Source: Clostridiales bacterium
GTDB taxonomy: Bacteria > Bacillota > Clostridia > Lachnospirales > Lachnospiraceae
NCBI GenBank assembly: GCA_021204025.1
Contig: JAJQAC010000071.1
Location: 1-47,563, forward strand
Direction: 5' to 3'
Length of the DNA: 47,563 bases
The notes below the pieces were generated by a model. It saw only the letters and a list, made by a program, of their open reading frames with translations. It searched no databases and was not told the origin of the DNA. The position numbers and the translations under genes were made by a program. Positions 24,784 through 36,868 of this stretch are shown in pieces (within the stretch, counting starts at the first letter, position 1; every line of letters starts with the position of its first letter).

Positions 24784-24808
24784 ATACTGTTTTATAAGGT
24801 AAATGCTT

Positions 24809-25194
24809 ATGAAATCATTTATAGATGAAGATTTTCTGCTTTCCACGGAGACCGCGAGAAGGCTGTACCACGAATATGCGGAGAAGATGCCGATCGTCGA
24901 CTACCACTGCCACATCAACCCTCAGGAAATCTATGAAGACCGCAAATTTGACAATATCACCCAGGTCTGGCTCGGCGGCGACCATTATAAATGGCGCCAG
25001 ATCCGCTCCAACGGCGTCGAGGAAAAAATACATAACCGGCGACGCCTCCGACCGCGACAAATTTCAGAAATGGGCCGAGACCCTCGAGACGGCGATCGGA
25101 AATCCGCTGTATCACTGGAGCCATCTGGAATTAAACAGATGACCTCCCTCGCTCTTATAACAACGCGGTACGGTATTTTAAATTTGACATTTGA
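24809..25194 (+). pseudogene. uxaC: uxaC (glucuronate isomerase) with internal deletion
   Basis: The intact start of UxaC is present ([12 protein letters not shown], the metal motif YHCHINPQE, and [19 protein letters not shown]). An extra A in the A6 run at 25023-25028 then shifts the frame. The second frame continues family sequence ([32 protein letters not shown]) to a TGA at 25140-25142. In a third frame 25156-25194 encodes [12 protein letters not shown] and a stop, which resembles the normal UxaC C-terminus. Roughly 340 codons are therefore missing between about 25139 and 25155 out of an enzyme of about 465 aa. The isomerase that makes fructuronate or tagaturonate must be encoded elsewhere if the pathway works. 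Confidence 0.85.
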
Positions 25195-25261
25195 GTTTTC
25201 TTTCTGACTGCGAAAGCCGCGTTCTATATTCCATCATCAGACGATCCGCGGCTTCGCGCCG

Positions 25262-25337: not shown

Positions 25338-25689
25338 TGCGTTGCTTTGGGAATGGTAGGTATTCAAATAAAAGAAAATGGTTTAGAGGAGTAAAGCTTT
25401 CTTTGCTTTACGATTATCATTATGCCCTAAAAATGTGATTAAAATATGGACGGTTTCTAAAATAATCATAAAGTTTCTAAAGAAAATCGAAGATTTTCTG
25501 AAACTTAAATGTCGCTTTCGGGCAAGATTTTTGATTCTCTCTATGAGCCTGATGGCAAACATCAAAACCCCGAAAAACCATTGCGGCCGGAAACCAAAAG
25601 ACAATAATTATCAGGAATAAATGCCATCTCTGCATTTTCTGTGTTATAATTCATCTTATTACGATACGAATTTTAATCTCGCCGGAATC

Positions 25690-25718
25690 TTGATTATTCC
25701 TCTCCGCTTCATTATACT
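25690..25718 (+). promoter_or_regulatory. Promoter of the TerB-BrxD-helicase operon
   Basis: TTGATT (25690-25695) and TATACT (25713-25718) are separated by exactly 17 bp. Just downstream of the expected start of transcription is TGACACCTGTCA (25742-25753), a dyad that could be an operator. Confidence 0.7.
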
Positions 25719-25787
25719 TATAGGAAACGGCAAACAAATTTGACACCTGTCACCCGGAACCATCCGCAATGCGGTACCTGTTATATT

Positions 25788-27509
25788 ATGAAACGACTGA
25801 CTAACTTTTTAAAAGGCACACGCGGCCTCTTCGAAGATCTATTCGACGACAGCTTTCAAAACGACGATGTTGAGAATGATGATTTCGAATATGACGACCC
25901 GGAGCCGTTCTACGAGGATGAGCCCATCTTCTTTCCCCCGGAGCGCAGAAACAATCTGACGCCAAAGGAATACCGCCATATGCGGGAACTGGCTTTCCAG
26001 ACACCGTTTAACCGTAACAATGACGCGAAGATCTTTTACCTGCAGGCCAGATACATGGAACAATTTGAGGATGACTGCCCTTATAACGGCGAAGTCCTTC
26101 ATTATTATCCCACTTACCAGGATCTGTCCACGGCCGAACTCCGGGGATATTTTACATGGCGCACCCGGCTGCGCCATGGACGTCTCGAGAAGACCTCTCT
26201 GTCCTATGCCTATCTCTATATCTATGAACTTTTGCATCAGATTGGCGTAAAAGACAAAGAAGAAGGGCTGAGAAAATTCATCTCGTTTTACGAACAGTAC
26301 GGTGCTCTGGACTCCCAGATCCAGCGCCATGCCGGACAATGGATCGTTGATTATGCCATCTATTATAATCTGCCGCCGGAACGTGTCCGGGCTTACACAA
26401 ATGCGGACTTTGACGAGGCTATGGACGCCATGCGGCACTGCGACACCGTCAGCAATGAGGTGCTGTTTCCGGCAATCATGCGGCTCTCTTCGTATCGCCT
26501 GGACAAGTCCCGGGCATATAAGCTGCATCCGGCAGAACTGGTACAGGTCATCTGTGAAGCCTACCGCAAACTGAACGCCCGTTACACAAAGCGCTACCAG
26601 CGTCCCTACACGGAAAAACTTTACGGGCGCAAGGTAAAGACCTGGTACCGCCCTTTCCGTTCAGCGGTATTTTTCGATCCTGCTCACCGGAGCATCTATG
26701 AATATTGGCTCAGTCCCATGCAATGTTACCGGTGTGAACAGAATCAATGGAGCATGGAGCGCGCCTATCTCTCTCCGCAGCGAAACCGGGATCTCGGCGT
26801 CTTTGTCCGCGCGGCTGACCGGCTGGTAAGAGAATCTTACAGCATACGTCCGGCTCTCAAAGCCGGCAATGAAACCAAAACCATGATACGGTTCATCGAG
26901 GAGACCATAGAGACGCAGAAAAAAGCAGCCGTACCGGTAATCAAATTCGATCTGCGCCAGCTGAACCGGATCCGCAAAAGTTCAGAAATCATTGGCAGGA
27001 AGCTGATGACAGAAGAAGAACGTGATCCGGACCCAATTCCGTCCCGGACGGCGACAGATGCCACAGCACCTCCCGCCGGCCGGCAGAAGATCCCGGTTGC
27101 TGATTCTGCCGTTCCCGCGCACCTGATAACCGGAACCGGAGGTTCGTTGACTGGCTCCCTATCTCCAGCTAACGCGGCTCTGACTCCCCGAACTCAGCAT
27201 CCCGATCCGCCCACCAGTTTAACCGGGTCGGTGAAGCCCCCTCTTAACTCCACGGTTTCGCCAGTCGAATCTGCTTCCGGCAACTGCCCTCTCTCCGGTG
27301 ATGAACTGCGTTTCATGCAGATCCTTCTATACGGCGGAGACCTGCCGGATTTTCTGTCGGAAAAACACCTCATGGCCTCCGTACTGGCCGAGACTGTCAA
27401 CGAGCGGCTCTATGATGAATTTGCCGATACCGTGATCGAATTTAACGAAAATACACCTGTAATCGTAGAAGATTACCGGGACGACCTGAAAGGAATGATA
27501 CCAAGTTGA
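25788..27509 (+). CDS. TerB_N/TerB_C domain protein
   Basis: About 573 aa from the ATG at 25788. A TTG at 25740 extends the frame, but it lies almost at the expected transcript start. Neither start has a strong ribosome site. An acidic N-terminus (DDSFQNDDVENDDFEYDD) precedes a TerB_N domain recognised by LSTAELRGYFTWRTRLRHG and TSLSYAYLYIYELLHQIG. After a Pro/Ser/Thr-rich linker of about 90 residues comes a TerB_C-type end (LSGDELRFMQILLYG, VNERLYDEFADTVIEF, VIVEDYRDDLKGMI). Such proteins occur with ATPases and helicases in stress or DNA-processing gene sets. The stop overlaps the next start by 4 nt (TTGA). Confidence 0.85.
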   Translation: MKRLTNFLKGTRGLFEDLFDDSFQNDDVENDDFEYDDPEPFYEDEPIFFPPERRNNLTPKEYRHMRELAFQTPFNRNNDAKIFYLQARYMEQFEDDCPYNGEVLHYYPTYQDLSTAELRGYFTWRTRLRHGRLEKTSLSYAYLYIYELLHQIGVKDKEEGLRKFISFYEQYGALDSQIQRHAGQWIVDYAIYYNLPPERVRAYTNADFDEAMDAMRHCDTVSNEVLFPAIMRLSSYRLDKSRAYKLHPAELVQVICEAYRKLNARYTKRYQRPYTEKLYGRKVKTWYRPFRSAVFFDPAHRSIYEYWLSPMQCYRCEQNQWSMERAYLSPQRNRDLGVFVRAADRLVRESYSIRPALKAGNETKTMIRFIEETIETQKKAAVPVIKFDLRQLNRIRKSSEIIGRKLMTEEERDPDPIPSRTATDATAPPAGRQKIPVADSAVPAHLITGTGGSLTGSLSPANAALTPRTQHPDPPTSLTGSVKPPLNSTVSPVESASGNCPLSGDELRFMQILLYGGDLPDFLSEKHLMASVLAETVNERLYDEFADTVIEFNENTPVIVEDYRDDLKGMIPS

Positions 27510-28828
27510 AGATACCAAAACGCATCGCCGCTACTCTCATCAATGCCCTGAAGGGCGGTGTTGTACCCCGCATCGGACTACCTTATATCACAGTTGGACG
27601 GGAACAGGAGATCAATGCCCTGCTCCATGACGTGGAAATCATTGCCGACGGCGGAGCGGCATTTCGCTTCATCTCCGGCAAATACGGCAGCGGCAAGAGT
27701 TTCCTGCTGCAGACCATCCGCAACTATGTCATGGACAAAAATTTCGTGGTCGTGGACGCCGATCTGTCCCCGGAACGCCGTCTCCAGGGCACAAGAGGCC
27801 AGGGTCTGGCAACTTATAAAGAACTGATCCGCAACATGTCCACCAAAACCCGCCCCGAAGGCGGCGCTCTGCCTTTGGTCCTGGATAAATGGATCAGCGG
27901 TATCCAGAGTGCGGTGGCAATGGACACAGGACTGTCCTTTGACGATCCGGAGTTTAGCCGGCTCGTACAACAGAAAATTTTTACCGTCATCAATGATCTG
28001 AGCGGAATGGTACACGGCTTTGACTTTGCCAGACTGCTGACCCTCTATTATCAGGCGTATTTCAATAATGACGAGACAATCAAGGCCAAAATCATCCGCT
28101 GGTTCCGCGGAGAATATCTGACGAAGACCGAAGCCCGTCAGGATCTGGGCGTTAATGTCATCATCACCGACGATGACTGGTACGAATACATCAAGATATT
28201 CGCGGCTTTTTTGAAAAACGCGGGCTATGCCGGTATGCTGGTACTCATTGACGAACTGGTTAATATCTATAAGATTCCCAACAGCATTACCCGACAATAT
28301 AACTACGAAAAGATCCTTACCATGTACAATGATACTCTGCAGGGCAAAGCCAGTCATCTGGGTATCATTCTCTGTGGGACGCCCCAGTGTATCGAGGATA
28401 CCCGCAGAGGTATTTACAGCTATGAAGCTCTGCGCTCCCGGCTGGCAGAAGGACGTTTTGCCCGCGAAGATACCCGCGATCTGCTGGCTCCCATCATTAA
28501 ACTGGCTCCCCTGACCAACGAAGAAATGCTGATTCTGGTAGAAAAGCTGGCAGATATCCACGCCCAGCTCTTTGCTTATGAACGTCGCCTGACTCAGGAC
28601 GACCTGATCACCTTTATCCGCATCGAATACAGCCGTGTGGGTGCCAACTCCCATATCACCCCCAGAGAGATTATCCGGGACTTTATTGAGCTGATGGACA
28701 TCCTGTTTCAAAATCCACAACTCGACGTAACTTCCCTTATGAGCTCCGAAGATTTTTCCTATGCCAAAACTCCTCTGGAAGAACAGGAAGCAGATAATCT
28801 CGGAGAATACGCGGAATTTACACTATAA
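27506..28828 (+). CDS. BrxD-type (DUF2791) AAA ATPase
   Basis: A 440 aa P-loop ATPase of the BrxC/BrxD family (DUF2791). Visible motifs are YITVGREQEI near the start, Walker A ISGKYGSGKS (residues 56-65), the family segment FVVVDADLSPERRLQG, Walker B MLVLIDELVNIY (about 243-254), and GIILCGTPQCIEDTRRGIYSYEALRSRL. It starts at TTG 27506 overlapping the TerB gene stop, so translation is coupled. In type 2 BREX loci, BrxD is paired with the helicase BrxHI, and here too a helicase follows. No PglX, PglZ or methyltransferase is nearby, so it is not a BREX locus. Confidence 0.88.
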   Translation: MKIPKRIAATLINALKGGVVPRIGLPYITVGREQEINALLHDVEIIADGGAAFRFISGKYGSGKSFLLQTIRNYVMDKNFVVVDADLSPERRLQGTRGQGLATYKELIRNMSTKTRPEGGALPLVLDKWISGIQSAVAMDTGLSFDDPEFSRLVQQKIFTVINDLSGMVHGFDFARLLTLYYQAYFNNDETIKAKIIRWFRGEYLTKTEARQDLGVNVIITDDDWYEYIKIFAAFLKNAGYAGMLVLIDELVNIYKIPNSITRQYNYEKILTMYNDTLQGKASHLGIILCGTPQCIEDTRRGIYSYEALRSRLAEGRFAREDTRDLLAPIIKLAPLTNEEMLILVEKLADIHAQLFAYERRLTQDDLITFIRIEYSRVGANSHITPREIIRDFIELMDILFQNPQLDVTSLMSSEDFSYAKTPLEEQEADNLGEYAEFTL

Positions 28829-28830
28829 AT

Positions 28831-28872
28831 GCAGGAAACGTCATATATCTTTTCCTTATGATGTTTCCTGCA
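28831..28872 (+). promoter_or_regulatory. Intra-operon hairpin between ATPase and helicase genes
   Basis: TGCAGGAAACGTCATA pairs with TATGATGTTTCCTGCA (one G-U pair) in the 68 bp gap. There is no U-tract, and the AAGGAGAT site for the helicase follows directly. Possible roles are mRNA processing or setting helicase dose. Confidence 0.65.
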
Positions 28873-28896
28873 ACGATATAAGGAGATCGAAAATCT

Positions 28897-31275
28897 GTGA
28901 ATACCTTTCACCGCTATGCGCCTTTTATCCAGGACTATATCTACCAGAACGGCTGGGAATCGCTGCGGGCCGTCCAGGCCGCTGCTGCGGATGTGATTTT
29001 CAATACAGATCAGAATCTGCTGCTCACCGCTTCCACTGCCTCCGGCAAGACGGAAGCCGCCTTTTTCCCCATCCTCACTCTGTTTACCGAAGATATGCCT
29101 TCTTCTGTAGGCGCAATCTACATCGGTCCGTTAAAGGCTCTGATCAATGACCAGTTTGCCCGCCTCTACGATCTCTGCAAAGAAGCGGACATCCCTGTCT
29201 GGCACTGGCACGGAGATGTATCACAATCGCATAAAAATAAAATGATGAAGCACCCCTCCGGCATCCTGCAGATCACTCCGGAGAGCCTGGAAGCCATGCT
29301 CCTGCACCGACATTCCGCCATCGCGAGGCTCTTTGGCGATCTGCGGTTCATCGTCATCGATGAGGTACATTCTCTCATGCGCGGGGACAGGGGCGGACAG
29401 ACCCTCTGCCTGATCGAGCGCCTGTGCCGTCTGGCAAATGTCAATCCTCGCCGCATCGGTCTCTCTGCCACCCTCGGCGACCCCAGAGACGCGGGGGCCT
29501 TTCTCTCCGCGGGAACCGGGCGACAGACTATCGTCCCAAAGCTGCCGCAGGGCGGGATGAAATGGCGGCTCTCGATGGAACATTTTTATACCTTTCCGCC
29601 GACCAATCCCGGTGCCCCTACCCGCATCCATGGGCAGGTTCCGCCGGAAACCGTACCGGCATCCGATACTCAGACTGCTGAGAATAATCTGTATGGAGAA
29701 GATACCCAGACTGCAAAAATATCTCATGCCCCATCTTCCAGGGATATTTCCCGGGAAGAGGCCGATGATGCCCTGTCGCCCAGGACGGACATCGCCCCGA
29801 AGGAAGCCGACTCCGGCATCGGATACATCTTTGAACACACCAGAGGAAAGAAATGCCTCATCTTCGTCAATTCCAGAGAAGAATGCGAAGCAGTCACCAC
29901 CACGCTGCGCCAATACTGCGAAGCAAAGAACGAACCAGACCGTTTCCTCATCCATCACGGCAATCTGTCCCAGTCCTACCGGGAGACCGCCGAGGCGGTG
30001 ATGAAAGACGAAGAACAGTTCCAGACCACGGTTACAACCGCCACATTGGAACTGGGCATTGATATCGGCCGACTGGAGCGCGCCTTTCAGATCGACGCGC
30101 CGTTTACCGTGTCCTCTTTCCTCCAGCGCATGGGGCGTACCGGGCGCCGGGATCTGCCACCGGAGATGTGGTTTGTCATGCGGGAAGAACCGCCCGAAGC
30201 GCGGGCTCTGCTGCCGGTCACCATCCCGTGGAAACTGATCCAGGGGATCGCTCTGGTGCAGCTCTATCTCGAAGAACGCTGGGTAGAACCGCCGAAACTT
30301 GACGCTTTACCCTATAGTCTGCTCTATCACCAGACGATGAGCACACTCGCTTCCGGCGGCGAGATGACACCGGCACAGCTGGCCGCCCGGATCCTGACCC
30401 TGCGATACTTCCGGAATGTCTCCCAGGAAGATTTCCGGATCCTCCTGCGCCATCTGTTAAAAACCGATCATATCCAGCAGACCGAAGGCGGCGGTCTCAT
30501 CGTAGGTCTTGCCGGGGAACGGATTGTCAATAATTTTAAATTTTATGCCGTATTTCAGGAAAACGAAGAATACACGGTACGTGCCGGCTCCGAAGAACTC
30601 GGAACCATCGTCAAACCACCGCCAGCCGGGGAAAAGATCGCCATCGCCGGTCATGTCTGGTTAGTCAACGAGGTCGATCATAAACGCCATCTCGTCTACT
30701 GCGAGTTGGTCAAGGGCAAAGTACCCGCCTACTTTGGTGAGGTCGCGGGCGATATCAATACGAAAATTCTTGAGCGGATGCAGAAAGTTCTCTGCGAGGA
30801 GAAATCCTACCCTTATCTGATGAAAAATGCCGTCACCAGACTGGCGACGGCCCGGACCTCCGCCAGGAACTCCGACCTCGTTCACAAACCTCTGGTCTGT
30901 CTGGGCGGCAATATGTACTGCCTCTTCCCCTGGCTTGGCACCTATGCGTTTCTCGCGTTAGAACGTTTTCTCAAGATCCACTGCGGCAAACGTCTGGGAC
31001 TGAAAGGACTCGACCCATCCCGGCCCTATTTTATCCAGTTTGTCATGACTGTTTCCGAACGGGAATTCTGGAAGATTCTCCGGGAAGACCTGGCACAACC
31101 GATCGATCCGATGAGCCTGGTCTACCCACGGGAAGTGCCCATCTTTGACAAATACGATGAATATCTGCCGGAAGAGCTGGTCAAAAAAGGGTTCGCCTGC
31201 GGAGTGCTGGGGATCGATGAGATGAAGGAGAAAATGCGGAAGATGTGCGATGTTCAGATCCGATGCTTTTCCTAG
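28897..31275 (+). CDS. Lhr/BrxHI-like DEAD/DEAH-box helicase
   Basis: A 792 aa SF2 helicase starting at GTG 28897 with AAGGAGAT 9 nt upstream. Motifs: TASTASGKTEAAFFPIL (I, about 44-60), IGPLKALINDQ (Ia), VIDEVHSL (II, about 151-158), GLSATLGD (III), IFVNSREECE (IV), TATLELGIDIG (V) and QRMGRTGRRD (VI, about 409-418). A poorly conserved, polar insert of about 70 residues lies between the two RecA domains, and a long C-terminal region follows. Architecture and the BrxD-type neighbour suggest a BrxHI-like role acting on DNA. Its end is 8 bp from the convergent TRIC gene. Confidence 0.88.
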   Translation: MNTFHRYAPFIQDYIYQNGWESLRAVQAAAADVIFNTDQNLLLTASTASGKTEAAFFPILTLFTEDMPSSVGAIYIGPLKALINDQFARLYDLCKEADIPVWHWHGDVSQSHKNKMMKHPSGILQITPESLEAMLLHRHSAIARLFGDLRFIVIDEVHSLMRGDRGGQTLCLIERLCRLANVNPRRIGLSATLGDPRDAGAFLSAGTGRQTIVPKLPQGGMKWRLSMEHFYTFPPTNPGAPTRIHGQVPPETVPASDTQTAENNLYGEDTQTAKISHAPSSRDISREEADDALSPRTDIAPKEADSGIGYIFEHTRGKKCLIFVNSREECEAVTTTLRQYCEAKNEPDRFLIHHGNLSQSYRETAEAVMKDEEQFQTTVTTATLELGIDIGRLERAFQIDAPFTVSSFLQRMGRTGRRDLPPEMWFVMREEPPEARALLPVTIPWKLIQGIALVQLYLEERWVEPPKLDALPYSLLYHQTMSTLASGGEMTPAQLAARILTLRYFRNVSQEDFRILLRHLLKTDHIQQTEGGGLIVGLAGERIVNNFKFYAVFQENEEYTVRAGSEELGTIVKPPPAGEKIAIAGHVWLVNEVDHKRHLVYCELVKGKVPAYFGEVAGDINTKILERMQKVLCEEKSYPYLMKNAVTRLATARTSARNSDLVHKPLVCLGGNMYCLFPWLGTYAFLALERFLKIHCGKRLGLKGLDPSRPYFIQFVMTVSEREFWKILREDLAQPIDPMSLVYPREVPIFDKYDEYLPEELVKKGFACGVLGIDEMKEKMRKMCDVQIRCFS

Positions 31276-31283
31276 CTTCCCGT

Positions 31284-31928
31284 TTATTCTTTCATCCGCG
31301 GCAGATTCCAGTGATAATGTCTCGCCAGCACCCGGATCACGATCACCACAACCGGAGAAACCGCCAGCGCCGTCATCTCACTAATATTGCGGTATAGCAG
31401 CACATAGCACAGCGCCCCTGCAATCGACGCGCAGGCGTAGATGTGACGTACCAGGATATACGGCGGATCCTGCGCCATCATGTCGCGCAGCAGACCGCCG
31501 CCTACCCCGGTCAGCGTGCCCAGAAATACGAGCAGAAAGGTCTTATCCGCATAACCGCTGCTGATCCCGGTCGTGACGCCCACCACCGTAAACGCGCCCA
31601 GACCAATGGAATCCATGACGAACATGACCTGATCATACACCAGGCGCCGATCTCCCTGCCACATATCTCTTTTGATATACAAGATACAAAACAATGCCAG
31701 TGCGGCGGCAGCTGCGATCAACGTATAAACCGGATTGGTCAGCGCCTTTGGCACGGTACCCAGGATCACATCGCGGGTCATGCCGCCTCCCACTGCGGTC
31801 ACCACTCCCAGCACACAGATCCCAAACAGATCCATGCCTTTATGTATACCAACCATCGCGCCGGAGGCTGAAAACGCGATCGTCCCCATAATTTCCATGA
31901 TAAAGATAACTGTATTCGTATATTGCAT
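31284..31928 (-). CDS. TRIC/UPF0126 family membrane protein
   Basis: A 214 aa, seven-helix membrane protein of the UPF0126/trimeric intracellular cation channel family, built from two repeats. Each repeat has the glycine-rich motif: AVGGGMTRDVILG and GVGGGLLRDMMAQ, with AFSASGAMVGIHKGMDLFGI at the front. Bacterial members are cation channels or glycine-linked transporters; the substrate cannot be told here. It is monocistronic with its own promoter (TTGCAT at 32073-32078 and TATAGT at 32051-32056, minus strand, 16 bp spacer). Confidence 0.88.
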   Translation of the reverse strand: MQYTNTVIFIMEIMGTIAFSASGAMVGIHKGMDLFGICVLGVVTAVGGGMTRDVILGTVPKALTNPVYTLIAAAAALALFCILYIKRDMWQGDRRLVYDQVMFVMDSIGLGAFTVVGVTTGISSGYADKTFLLVFLGTLTGVGGGLLRDMMAQDPPYILVRHIYACASIAGALCYVLLYRNISEMTALAVSPVVVIVIRVLARHYHWNLPRMKE

Positions 31929-35163: not shown

Positions 35164-36753
35164 TCAGGCTTCCTCAATCACACAGCTATGTCTCTTAACC
35201 TCTTTTCCTTTTGTATCCCTGTCATAATTGATTCCAACTAAAAGCAAATTGCCAGAATACTCCTCTAACACACCCTCATACCGATTATCATGAATCTGTT
35301 GAATCGCACTGTCGGCATCCTTATCGTATTTTAGTTCGATGATCATGGCAGGCATGCCCACTCCCCGCCTTGGAATAAACGCCAGATCCGCAAAACCCTT
35401 TCCCGCAGGAAGTTCCCGTATCATAGTATAATATCGTTTCGCCGTATAATATGCAATTGTAATGGCGCAACTCAGAGACGCTTCATTATTATATTGAAGT
35501 ACAGAAGAAACAGAACCATGAATTTCCTCCAAAGCTTCGGCCACTGCTTCTTCCTCTTTTCTCAAAGTTGCCTGAAGCAATTTTTCCGAATCCGATATCG
35601 CCTCTCCTATGATTCCCCACTTTCCGGCGCTCACCGCATCCTCAAACGCCTCTGCAACTTCCAGATTCGGGATATAAGCCTCCCGCCTCCTCGAATCATA
35701 AGCAAGATAACCCAGATGCACAAGGAGTGTCAAAACATCATTTCTGTTGTTAAAAGACGTTAAATCGTTTTGAAACGTGCTGATCTTTATGCCAACATGG
35801 CTGCCGCCAAGCATTTCGATAACCGCACCTTTCAGTCCGTCATAACCCATTCCGATATATTCTTTTAAACTTTCAAAAGACTCGGTCTGCGTCCAGTAAT
35901 TCAAAACCTCCCCTTCCCGTAATGCACTCATCACAGAATTCGGACTATACACATGTTGAATCCTGCTAAATGAATATCCATCATACCAGGTACGTAAATC
36001 ATCGAAATCCATCTGGGAATTTTCACACAAACGCTTTACCTCGTCTTCAGTAAATCCGACATATTCGGCCAGGCATCCAGGTTTTGTCATGGAGTATTCC
36101 CTGAAATCCGTCAATGCAGATTCTGTCCCGTATTTCTTAATCGGAAGGATTCCCGTCATATAGGCAGCCGCAATCGTCCCATCCGTTGTCGTTCCACCTT
36201 TGAACAGCCCACGAAGAAGCTGTATATATTCCTTTTGAAGAGATTCCCTGTTCTTTGCCTCGCGAAAAAGTGCGTCCCACTCATCAATGATAATAACAAA
36301 CTCATTTCCTGTCTTTTCCGAAATTCCGGAAAGCGCCCTGGGCAGCGACTTTTCACTTTCCGGAACCAGATTGAAAAACTTTTCTCTCAGTTCCGAAATA
36401 ACGCTGTTTTGTATATCCCTGACTATTCCATCTATATGATCTGTCGTAGAGATAAACCACGTAATATCCAGATAAATCACATCATATTGATTCAGTCCTT
36501 TTTCAAAAGATGCTTTTTTCGATATCTCTAATCCCTCGAAAAGAACACGCGAGTCACAGCTCTTATCATAATAAGCGCACAGCATCTTTGCCGCAAACGA
36601 CTTGCCAAAACGGCGGGGACGGCTAACACTTGTCAACTTCAAGGGCGTATGAATCGTACTGTTTACATAATCGATTAATCCTGTTTTATCAACATAAACA
36701 CCGTTTAAAATTGTCTGAAACCCCTTATTTCCAGGATTCAGATACATGCCCAT
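35164..36753 (-). CDS. AAA-ATPase-like / PD-(D/E)XK nuclease fusion protein
   Basis: About 529 aa from the ATG at 36753, which has AGGAGGGAGG 6-10 nt upstream; the frame is open to 36828. The N-terminal AAA-ATPase-like domain (family PF09820) has FQTILNGVYVDKTGLID, Walker A SRPRRFGKSF and Walker B VIIIDEWDALF. The C-terminal domain is PD-(D/E)XK-like: GKGFADLAFIPR followed by MIIELKYDKDADSAIQQI. This family is abundant and multi-copy in gut Clostridia and Bacteroidetes. A mobile or defence role has been suspected but its function is unknown. It is monocistronic. Confidence 0.88.
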   Translation of the reverse strand: MGMYLNPGNKGFQTILNGVYVDKTGLIDYVNSTIHTPLKLTSVSRPRRFGKSFAAKMLCAYYDKSCDSRVLFEGLEISKKASFEKGLNQYDVIYLDITWFISTTDHIDGIVRDIQNSVISELREKFFNLVPESEKSLPRALSGISEKTGNEFVIIIDEWDALFREAKNRESLQKEYIQLLRGLFKGGTTTDGTIAAAYMTGILPIKKYGTESALTDFREYSMTKPGCLAEYVGFTEDEVKRLCENSQMDFDDLRTWYDGYSFSRIQHVYSPNSVMSALREGEVLNYWTQTESFESLKEYIGMGYDGLKGAVIEMLGGSHVGIKISTFQNDLTSFNNRNDVLTLLVHLGYLAYDSRRREAYIPNLEVAEAFEDAVSAGKWGIIGEAISDSEKLLQATLRKEEEAVAEALEEIHGSVSSVLQYNNEASLSCAITIAYYTAKRYYTMIRELPAGKGFADLAFIPRRGVGMPAMIIELKYDKDADSAIQQIHDNRYEGVLEEYSGNLLLVGINYDRDTKGKEVKRHSCVIEEA

Positions 36754-36868
36754 AAATTGTCCTCCCTCCTGTCGTTGCACAGACCTCTTTGCACTTTGCA
36801 TTATAATGGATTTCATTTTACATTTCAACCCTGGCAGCCTCTCACACCAGAATCCTATGAGCAGCCGG

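What the first reader, a model, noticed from the sequence alone, without database searches (positions are those of the whole stretch)
25690..31275. TerB + BrxD-type ATPase + Lhr/BrxHI-type helicase: stand-alone three-gene system
Seen: one promoter, a 4-nt overlap between gene 1 and gene 2, a 68-bp gap before gene 3, and clear motifs for TerB_N/TerB_C, a DUF2791 ATPase and a DEVH helicase. Known: BrxD and BrxHI are a pair in type 2 BREX phage defence, and TerB-domain proteins have been linked by comparative genomics to ATPase and helicase genes in stress-type systems. Here no BREX methyltransferase, PglZ or PglW is present. Inference: this is a self-contained DNA-surveillance or repair machine in which TerB is the sensor or scaffold. 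It is the best candidate in the window for an under-described system.
Basis: partly seen in the sequence, partly recalled or inferred. Interest (0 to 1): 0.75.

Follow-up and report, generated by a model that had tools for sequence, protein, structure and literature searches.

The report
A Shango anti-phage defence operon
This three-gene bacterial operon is a copy of Shango, an already described defence system against bacterial viruses, so it is ordinary as a find, although how Shango works is still unclear.

Summary
It is not undescribed: the proteins match the PADLOC profiles SngA (2.8e-67), SngB (3.4e-192) and SngC (3.2e-276). This is Shango, a stand-alone TerB/ATPase/helicase system reported to reduce plating of many tested phages when moved from P. 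aeruginosa PA14 into PAO1 (PMC10250203, passages). It is not BREX: no PglZ in the genome, BrxD score far below cut-off. But flanking genes show no clear excess of other defence genes. All three genes are under purifying selection; SngA changes 2.5-13 times faster (dN) than its partners and has no solved relative found. Likely mechanism (inferred): SngB, an ORC/Cdc6-like AAA+ protein, loads the SngC helicase on phage DNA; SngA provides recognition.

The parts
25621..25650 (+). promoter-like site (upstream one), inside a 61-bp block (25598-25658) conserved in relative G155
25690..25718 (+). promoter-like site directly upstream of sngA (TTGATT-17-TATACT)
25788..27509 (+). sngA: TerB_N and TerB_C protein, 573 aa, with a disordered linker at about residues 411-498
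27506..28828 (+). sngB: AAA+ ATPase of the BrxC/BrxD family, 440 aa, ORC/Cdc6-like fold
28830..28872 (.). 43-bp palindrome inserted between sngB and sngC; six further related copies in the genome
28897..31275 (+). sngC: SF2 DEVH helicase, BrxHI-like, 792 aa

Best explanation
The operon is an intact Shango anti-phage system (SngA, SngB, SngC). Shown here: identity of all three proteins, order, intact catalytic motifs, purifying selection, patchy distribution. Shown in print for another Shango: protection against phages. Inferred: SngB, an ORC/Cdc6-like AAA+ ATPase, assembles on foreign or replicating phage DNA and loads or licenses the SngC helicase, whose movement disrupts phage DNA replication or hands it to host nucleases, since no nuclease domain was found in the trio; SngA is the adaptable recognition and scaffold subunit. 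My confidence by step: identity 0.97; this copy is anti-phage 0.75; loader-helicase mechanism 0.4; SngA as recognition subunit 0.35.
For: PADLOC: SngA 2.8e-67; SngB 3.4e-192 against BrxD 2.5e-44; SngC 3.2e-276 against BrxHI 3e-121; nearly full length for B and C. Relatives keep the order A-B-C on one strand: SngA found in 96, SngB in 99, SngC in 92 of 99 loci (loci were fetched by SngB; at least two contigs are counted twice, L035/L105 and L037/L111; some SngA and SngC are fragments or cut; one SngA miss and five SngC misses lie at contig ends; in L040 and L051 no SngA, in L134 and L162 no SngC was found nearby). The GKS core of Walker A and D249-E250 of SngB are invariant in 18 of 18; helicase motifs of SngC are intact. 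Whole-gene dN/dS over 10 genus pairs each: SngA 0.15-0.21, SngB 0.03-0.08, SngC 0.04-0.07; dS exceeds 1 in many pairs. Patchy: SngB orthologue in 5 of 24 genus genomes and 16 of 150 family genomes, SngA profile in 16 of 299 phylum genomes, own genome included each time. SngB relatives in 692 plasmid records, 542 called conjugative; one of these, a Klebsiella plasmid, was checked and matches all three Sng profiles. SngB model: best PDB matches are the RdrA ring (5.1e-4) and ORC/Cdc6 chains (1.2e-3 and higher). Phage protection by PA14 Shango in PAO1 (PMC10250203, passages).
Against: No phage test of this copy. Neighbouring genes are not clearly enriched in defence families: at 1e-15, 126 flank ORFs of 18 Shango loci gave mad3 5, mad8 1, GlgB 1, DEDDh 1, and 124 control ORFs of 16 loci gave DEDDh 5, mad3 2, CARF fusion 1. 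SngA shows no sign of positive selection: whole-gene dN/dS below 0.22, highest 60-codon window 0.68, so an arms race is not demonstrated. No central TerB domain (PF05099) is detected in this SngA or in 39 relatives. In print not all phages were affected. The loader role rests on fold resemblance with modest scores (TM about 0.3-0.4 for the leading ORC/Cdc6 and RdrA matches, and other AAA+ types match too) and on analogy with BrxD (PMC12839542, passages).
Confidence: 0.75

Rival explanations
1. A housekeeping DNA repair or genome maintenance machine of the host, not a defence system.
For: Strong purifying selection on SngB and SngC; SngC also scores with repair-type helicase models, below cut-off, and with solved cellular DNA helicases; the scanned flank genes in the window are mostly metabolic; no clear excess of defence neighbours.
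Against: No orthologue in 19 of 24 genus genomes, in 134 of 150 family genomes, and no SngA profile match in 283 of 299 phylum genomes; changing neighbours; relatives on plasmids; Lhr and repair-helicase cut-offs are missed.
Confidence: 0.1
2. A degraded or partial BREX type 2 island that kept only BrxD and BrxHI.
For: BrxD and BrxHI are the next best profiles for SngB and SngC; helicases of Shango, BREX, Druantia and Dpd form a potentially distinct clade in print (PMC12278908, passages).
Against: Scores favour Shango by about 490 and 510 bits; NCBIfam BrxD 150 bits against a cut-off of 350; no PglZ in the genome; the same trio recurs in scores of loci.
Confidence: 0.02
3. Shango acts as an abortive system: SngA senses infection and the ATPase-helicase pair harms the host cell's own DNA or replication.
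For: Other defence systems pair a sensor helicase with a harmful partner, e.g. Hachiman with its effector nuclease (PMC12278908, start of abstract in the listing; that Hachiman ends in host death is recalled); nothing in the sequence argues against it.
Against: No nuclease or other toxic effector domain was found in the three proteins; [quoted passage not shown]
Confidence: 0.2

Closest known systems
Shango (SngA, SngB, SngC) as described in P. aeruginosa PA14 and reported from E. coli
   Same: The three kinds of protein and the stand-alone organisation.
   Different: This SngA (573 aa) has no recognisable central TerB domain, whereas the SngA of a Klebsiella plasmid Shango (769 aa) has TerB_N, TerB and TerB_C; SngB is 41% identical to the version on that plasmid. 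The PA14 proteins themselves were not compared.
BREX type 2 pair BrxD and BrxHI
   Same: Related AAA+ ATPase and SF2 helicase, a tight pair in print.
   Different: No PglZ in the genome; a TerB protein beside the pair; scores well below BrxD's cut-off.
Lhr and ligase-associated DEXH helicases
   Same: SF2 helicase core; the nearest solved chains are 5v9x and 7lhl, 'ATP-dependent DNA helicase' (Lhr by recall), and YprA 6znp.
   Different: Family cut-offs missed: WH_Lhr 12.1 of 27 bits, TIGR04121 196 of 850 bits.

Membership tests
Shango | SngA protein (TerB_N and TerB_C) | tested here: met
   PADLOC SngA 2.8e-67; Pfam TerB_N and TerB_C over cut-off
Shango | SngB ATPase | tested here: met
   PADLOC SngB 3.4e-192, residues 2-438 on 5-437 of 439
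Shango | SngC helicase | tested here: met
   PADLOC SngC 3.2e-276, residues 3-780 on 5-717 of 720
Shango | adjacent genes, order A-B-C, one strand | tested here: met
   same order in the annotated Klebsiella plasmid
Shango | central TerB domain PF05099 (listed for Shango in a review table; not needed for a match to the PADLOC SngA model) | tested here: inconclusive
   not detected in 40 of 40 SngA scanned; detected in the Klebsiella plasmid SngA; the PADLOC SngA profile matches from position 53 to 527 of 528 without it; review passage
Shango | protects cells from phages | not testable with these tools
   seen in print for the PA14 system, and reported there for E. coli
BREX type 2 | PglZ in the locus or genome | tested here: not met
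   0 matches of PF08665 in the own genome
BREX type 2 | BrxD above the NCBIfam cut-off | tested here: not met
   150 bits against 350
BREX type 2 | PglX methyltransferase and PglW kinase | not tested
   no search of the genome was made; none came up among the nine window proteins scanned, two of which had no family
Lhr / ligase-associated repair helicase | Lhr winged helix or TIGR04121 above cut-off | tested here: not met
   12.1 of 27 bits; 196 of 850 bits

The most novel reading that the evidence does not exclude
In Clostridia-type Shango systems SngA is a modular, fast-changing recognition subunit without the TerB core (metal binding by TerB is recalled): a fold with no solved relative found (TerB_N and a middle region, a disordered linker, TerB_C) to which different front domains are attached in different lineages (a YjbR-like one in a few, a radical SAM domain in one), while the SngB-SngC motor stays constant. 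Specificity would then lie in SngA and could be swapped between systems.
Probability: 0.25. Interest if true: 0.5.

Novelty: new member of a known kind. Interest (0 to 1): 0.18.

Why it matters
It adds a well preserved Shango of a Clostridia-type genome to a system for which I found no mechanism in the papers I could search (listings, several of them capped). The one general result of use is the contrast in rates: SngB and SngC keep a median of about 70% identity between loci where SngA keeps about 30%, which points to SngA as the part to swap in an experiment on phage specificity.

Tried and rejected
Rejected: BREX remnant; Lhr-type repair helicase as a family; phage-borne system (no SngB match at 1e-5 in the collection of 50,697 phage records). 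The neighbouring Gly_transporter-type gene (31284-31928, minus; called TRIC type by recall) as a fourth member: it follows Shango at 95-96% identity in G157 and G155, but G156 and G158, which carry Shango, have no match to it, so it is not part of the system. A defence-island test of the flanks gave no clear result: I gave 18 of the 19 family and genus loci (L037 dropped, short contig), up to four closed ORFs of 100 aa or more on each side; the control was flanks of the TRIC-type gene in 16 of the 20 genus genomes with a match (the three with adjacent Shango, and G171, dropped). tRNA genes in the fetched stretches: 2 of 18 Shango loci, 1 of 16 control loci, so no tRNA rule. Fold searches with SngA in PDB and viral models gave nothing below E 0.2; weak matches to winged-helix DNA-binding proteins (E 2 and more) are not evidence. 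No solved chain matched the SngA or SngB profile. Paper searches on TerB with helicase terms returned mainly unrelated papers.
Full report
Observation. The operon is present as described. The start of gene 1 is taken as ATG 25788, where the closest homologues begin, and not TTG 25740. Overlap and gap are exactly 4 nt and 68 bp. Pfam finds TerB_N and TerB_C in protein 1, BrxC_BrxD (PF10923) in protein 2, and DEAD plus Helicase_C in protein 3.

Identity. PADLOC names the three proteins SngA, SngB and SngC, each as the best match and, for SngB and SngC, over nearly the full length. The next profiles for proteins 2 and 3, BrxD and BrxHI, are lower by about 490 and 510 bits. Shango was described in P. 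aeruginosa PA14 as a three-gene TerB, ATPase, helicase system that lowers plating of many of the phages tested 10-100 fold in PAO1, with no effect on some, and that paper states that it was also found in E. coli, with about 10-fold effect on two phages (PMC10250203; passages seen). The E. coli paper (Millman and others, 2022) was not found in the library (one search returned one unrelated paper that cites it); I know it only by recall and from that passage. The finding is therefore a new member of a known system.

Why not BREX. The genome assembly (98.5% complete) holds no PglZ match and a single PF10923 protein, SngB itself. NCBIfam's BrxD model scores 150 bits against a cut-off of 350.

A SngB orthologue (85% identity or more) is in 5 of 24 genus genomes, own included; four more show only weak matches. 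In the family 18 of 150 genomes match: 16 at 56% identity or more, own included and G069 in two pieces, and two with weak matches only. In the phylum 16 of 299 genomes, own included, match the SngA profile at 1e-20; 0 of 14 control genomes do. Apart from the trio, no gene family of 90 aa or more is shared by more than 5 of the 20 neighbourhoods compared. Within the genus the flanks differ: G155 shares the right flank, G157 shares only the TRIC-type gene, G156 and G158 share neither. On plasmids, 692 of 72,556 records hold a SngB relative, all below 60% identity, mostly Klebsiella (449) and Salmonella (144), 542 of them called conjugative; the search does not by itself tell SngB from BrxD, and I checked one of them, a Klebsiella plasmid whose three proteins match SngA, SngB and SngC, and saw the annotated trio in a Paenibacillus plasmid. 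In the phage records there was no match. This is the pattern of a mobile accessory system. Against a defence-island reading, the near flanks are not clearly richer in known defence genes than control flanks.

Local history. The left flank of the window up to 25507 matches the uxaC region of the close relative G155 (contig C114), and from 25598 on the window matches another contig of G155 (C116), where Shango lies behind genes that read as an ABC transport operon and an ATC_hydrolase gene. The window lacks that hydrolase gene but keeps what look like its last bases. uxaC itself is broken here by a loss of about 1 kb and a shift of frame; another, open copy lies on contig C27. The junction at 25508-25597 is thus a site of rearrangement; a chimeric contig cannot be excluded.

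State of the genes. Ten genus pairs per gene give whole-gene dN/dS 0.15-0.21 for SngA, 0.03-0.08 for SngB and 0.04-0.07 for SngC; dN of SngA is 2.8-13 times that of SngB and 2.5-6.7 times that of SngC; dS is above 1 in many pairs, so these ratios are rough. All three look like functional genes under purifying selection. In 76 sets with all three proteins (the window and 75 loci of at least 60% length, some of the same contig), median pair identity is 30.2% for SngA, 70.5% for SngB and 70.4% for SngC; SngA is below SngB in 2849 of 2850 pairs, which are not independent. In the three closest pairs the windows of 60 codons in the body of SngA (61-420) give dN/dS 0.05-0.17; the highest values are in the linker, 421-480, and at the N-terminus and 481-540 in some pairs (up to 0.68).

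Structure. SngA was modelled at mean pLDDT 81 from 40 sequences: an ordered body at about 42-410, a disordered linker at about 411-498 and an ordered TerB_C end. No PDB relative was found by profile or by Foldseek. 40 of 40 SngA scanned have TerB_N and TerB_C and none the central TerB family PF05099, which the Klebsiella plasmid SngA has. SngB was modelled at mean pLDDT 77 from 31 sequences; its best matches are the RdrA ring (E 5.1e-4; RADAR by recall) and ORC/Cdc6 chains (E 1.2e-3 and higher), with other AAA+ proteins below. In print BrxD is classed as an ORC-Cdc6 AAA+ ATPase and suggested to load BrxHI (PMC12839542, passages). SngC keeps the helicase motifs.

Mechanism. I commit to: SngB assembles and loads SngC on phage DNA, SngC moves along it and disturbs its replication, and SngA recognises the infection. 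Only the parts and their conservation are shown. No nuclease family came up at E up to 1 in SngA and SngB, and in SngC only helicase families (ResIII and Cas3-like C-terminal models among them), so damage, if any, would probably be done by host enzymes. No paper on the Shango mechanism came up (28 of 28 listed; 2 of 2; 20 of 267; 40 of 88; 5 of 5; 15 of 190; 15 of 144); I read the listings and saw passages of PMC10250203, PMC12278908, PMC10952713, PMC12839542 and PMC12926258. Subscription papers are mostly not held, so this is no proof of absence. One review lists the Shango mechanism as unknown (PMC12926258, passages).

Verdict. An ordinary, intact Shango. Interest is low as a discovery; the rate contrast and the SngA variants are worth a line in a Shango study.

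Noticed in passing
28830-28872: A 43-bp palindrome with 16-base arms (RNA fold of 28820-28900: z-score -5.7) sits between sngB and sngC, flanked by what look like 9-bp near-repeats; six further related copies (84-95%) occur elsewhere in the genome, and four genus relatives lack it at this site: perhaps a small REP- or MITE-like element.
   Followed up: partly
24803-25202: uxaC pseudogene: a shift of frame and a loss of about 1 kb compared with the intact gene of G155; a second open copy lies on contig C27.
   Followed up: partly
L049:10555-13221: A SngA homologue with a radical SAM domain (PF04055, 1e-10) in front of TerB_N in one open frame, with SngB and SngC beside it.
   Followed up: partly
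L041, L042, L043, L167, L177, L180 (SngA N-terminus): Some long SngA versions carry a further N-terminal domain that looks alike by eye; 1 of the 40 SngA scanned matches YjbR PF04237 at 8.7e-5, the output does not say which.
   Followed up: partly
L040, L051, L134, L162: Loci where SngB-SngC stand without a detected SngA (L040, L051) or SngA-SngB without a detected SngC (L134, L162); in L134 an ORF that reads as a site-specific recombinase follows sngB.
   Followed up: no
35164-36828: An AAA-ATPase_like / PDDEXK_9 protein; relatives lie near Shango in L034 and L048, but PADLOC gives it no family at 1e-10.
   Followed up: no
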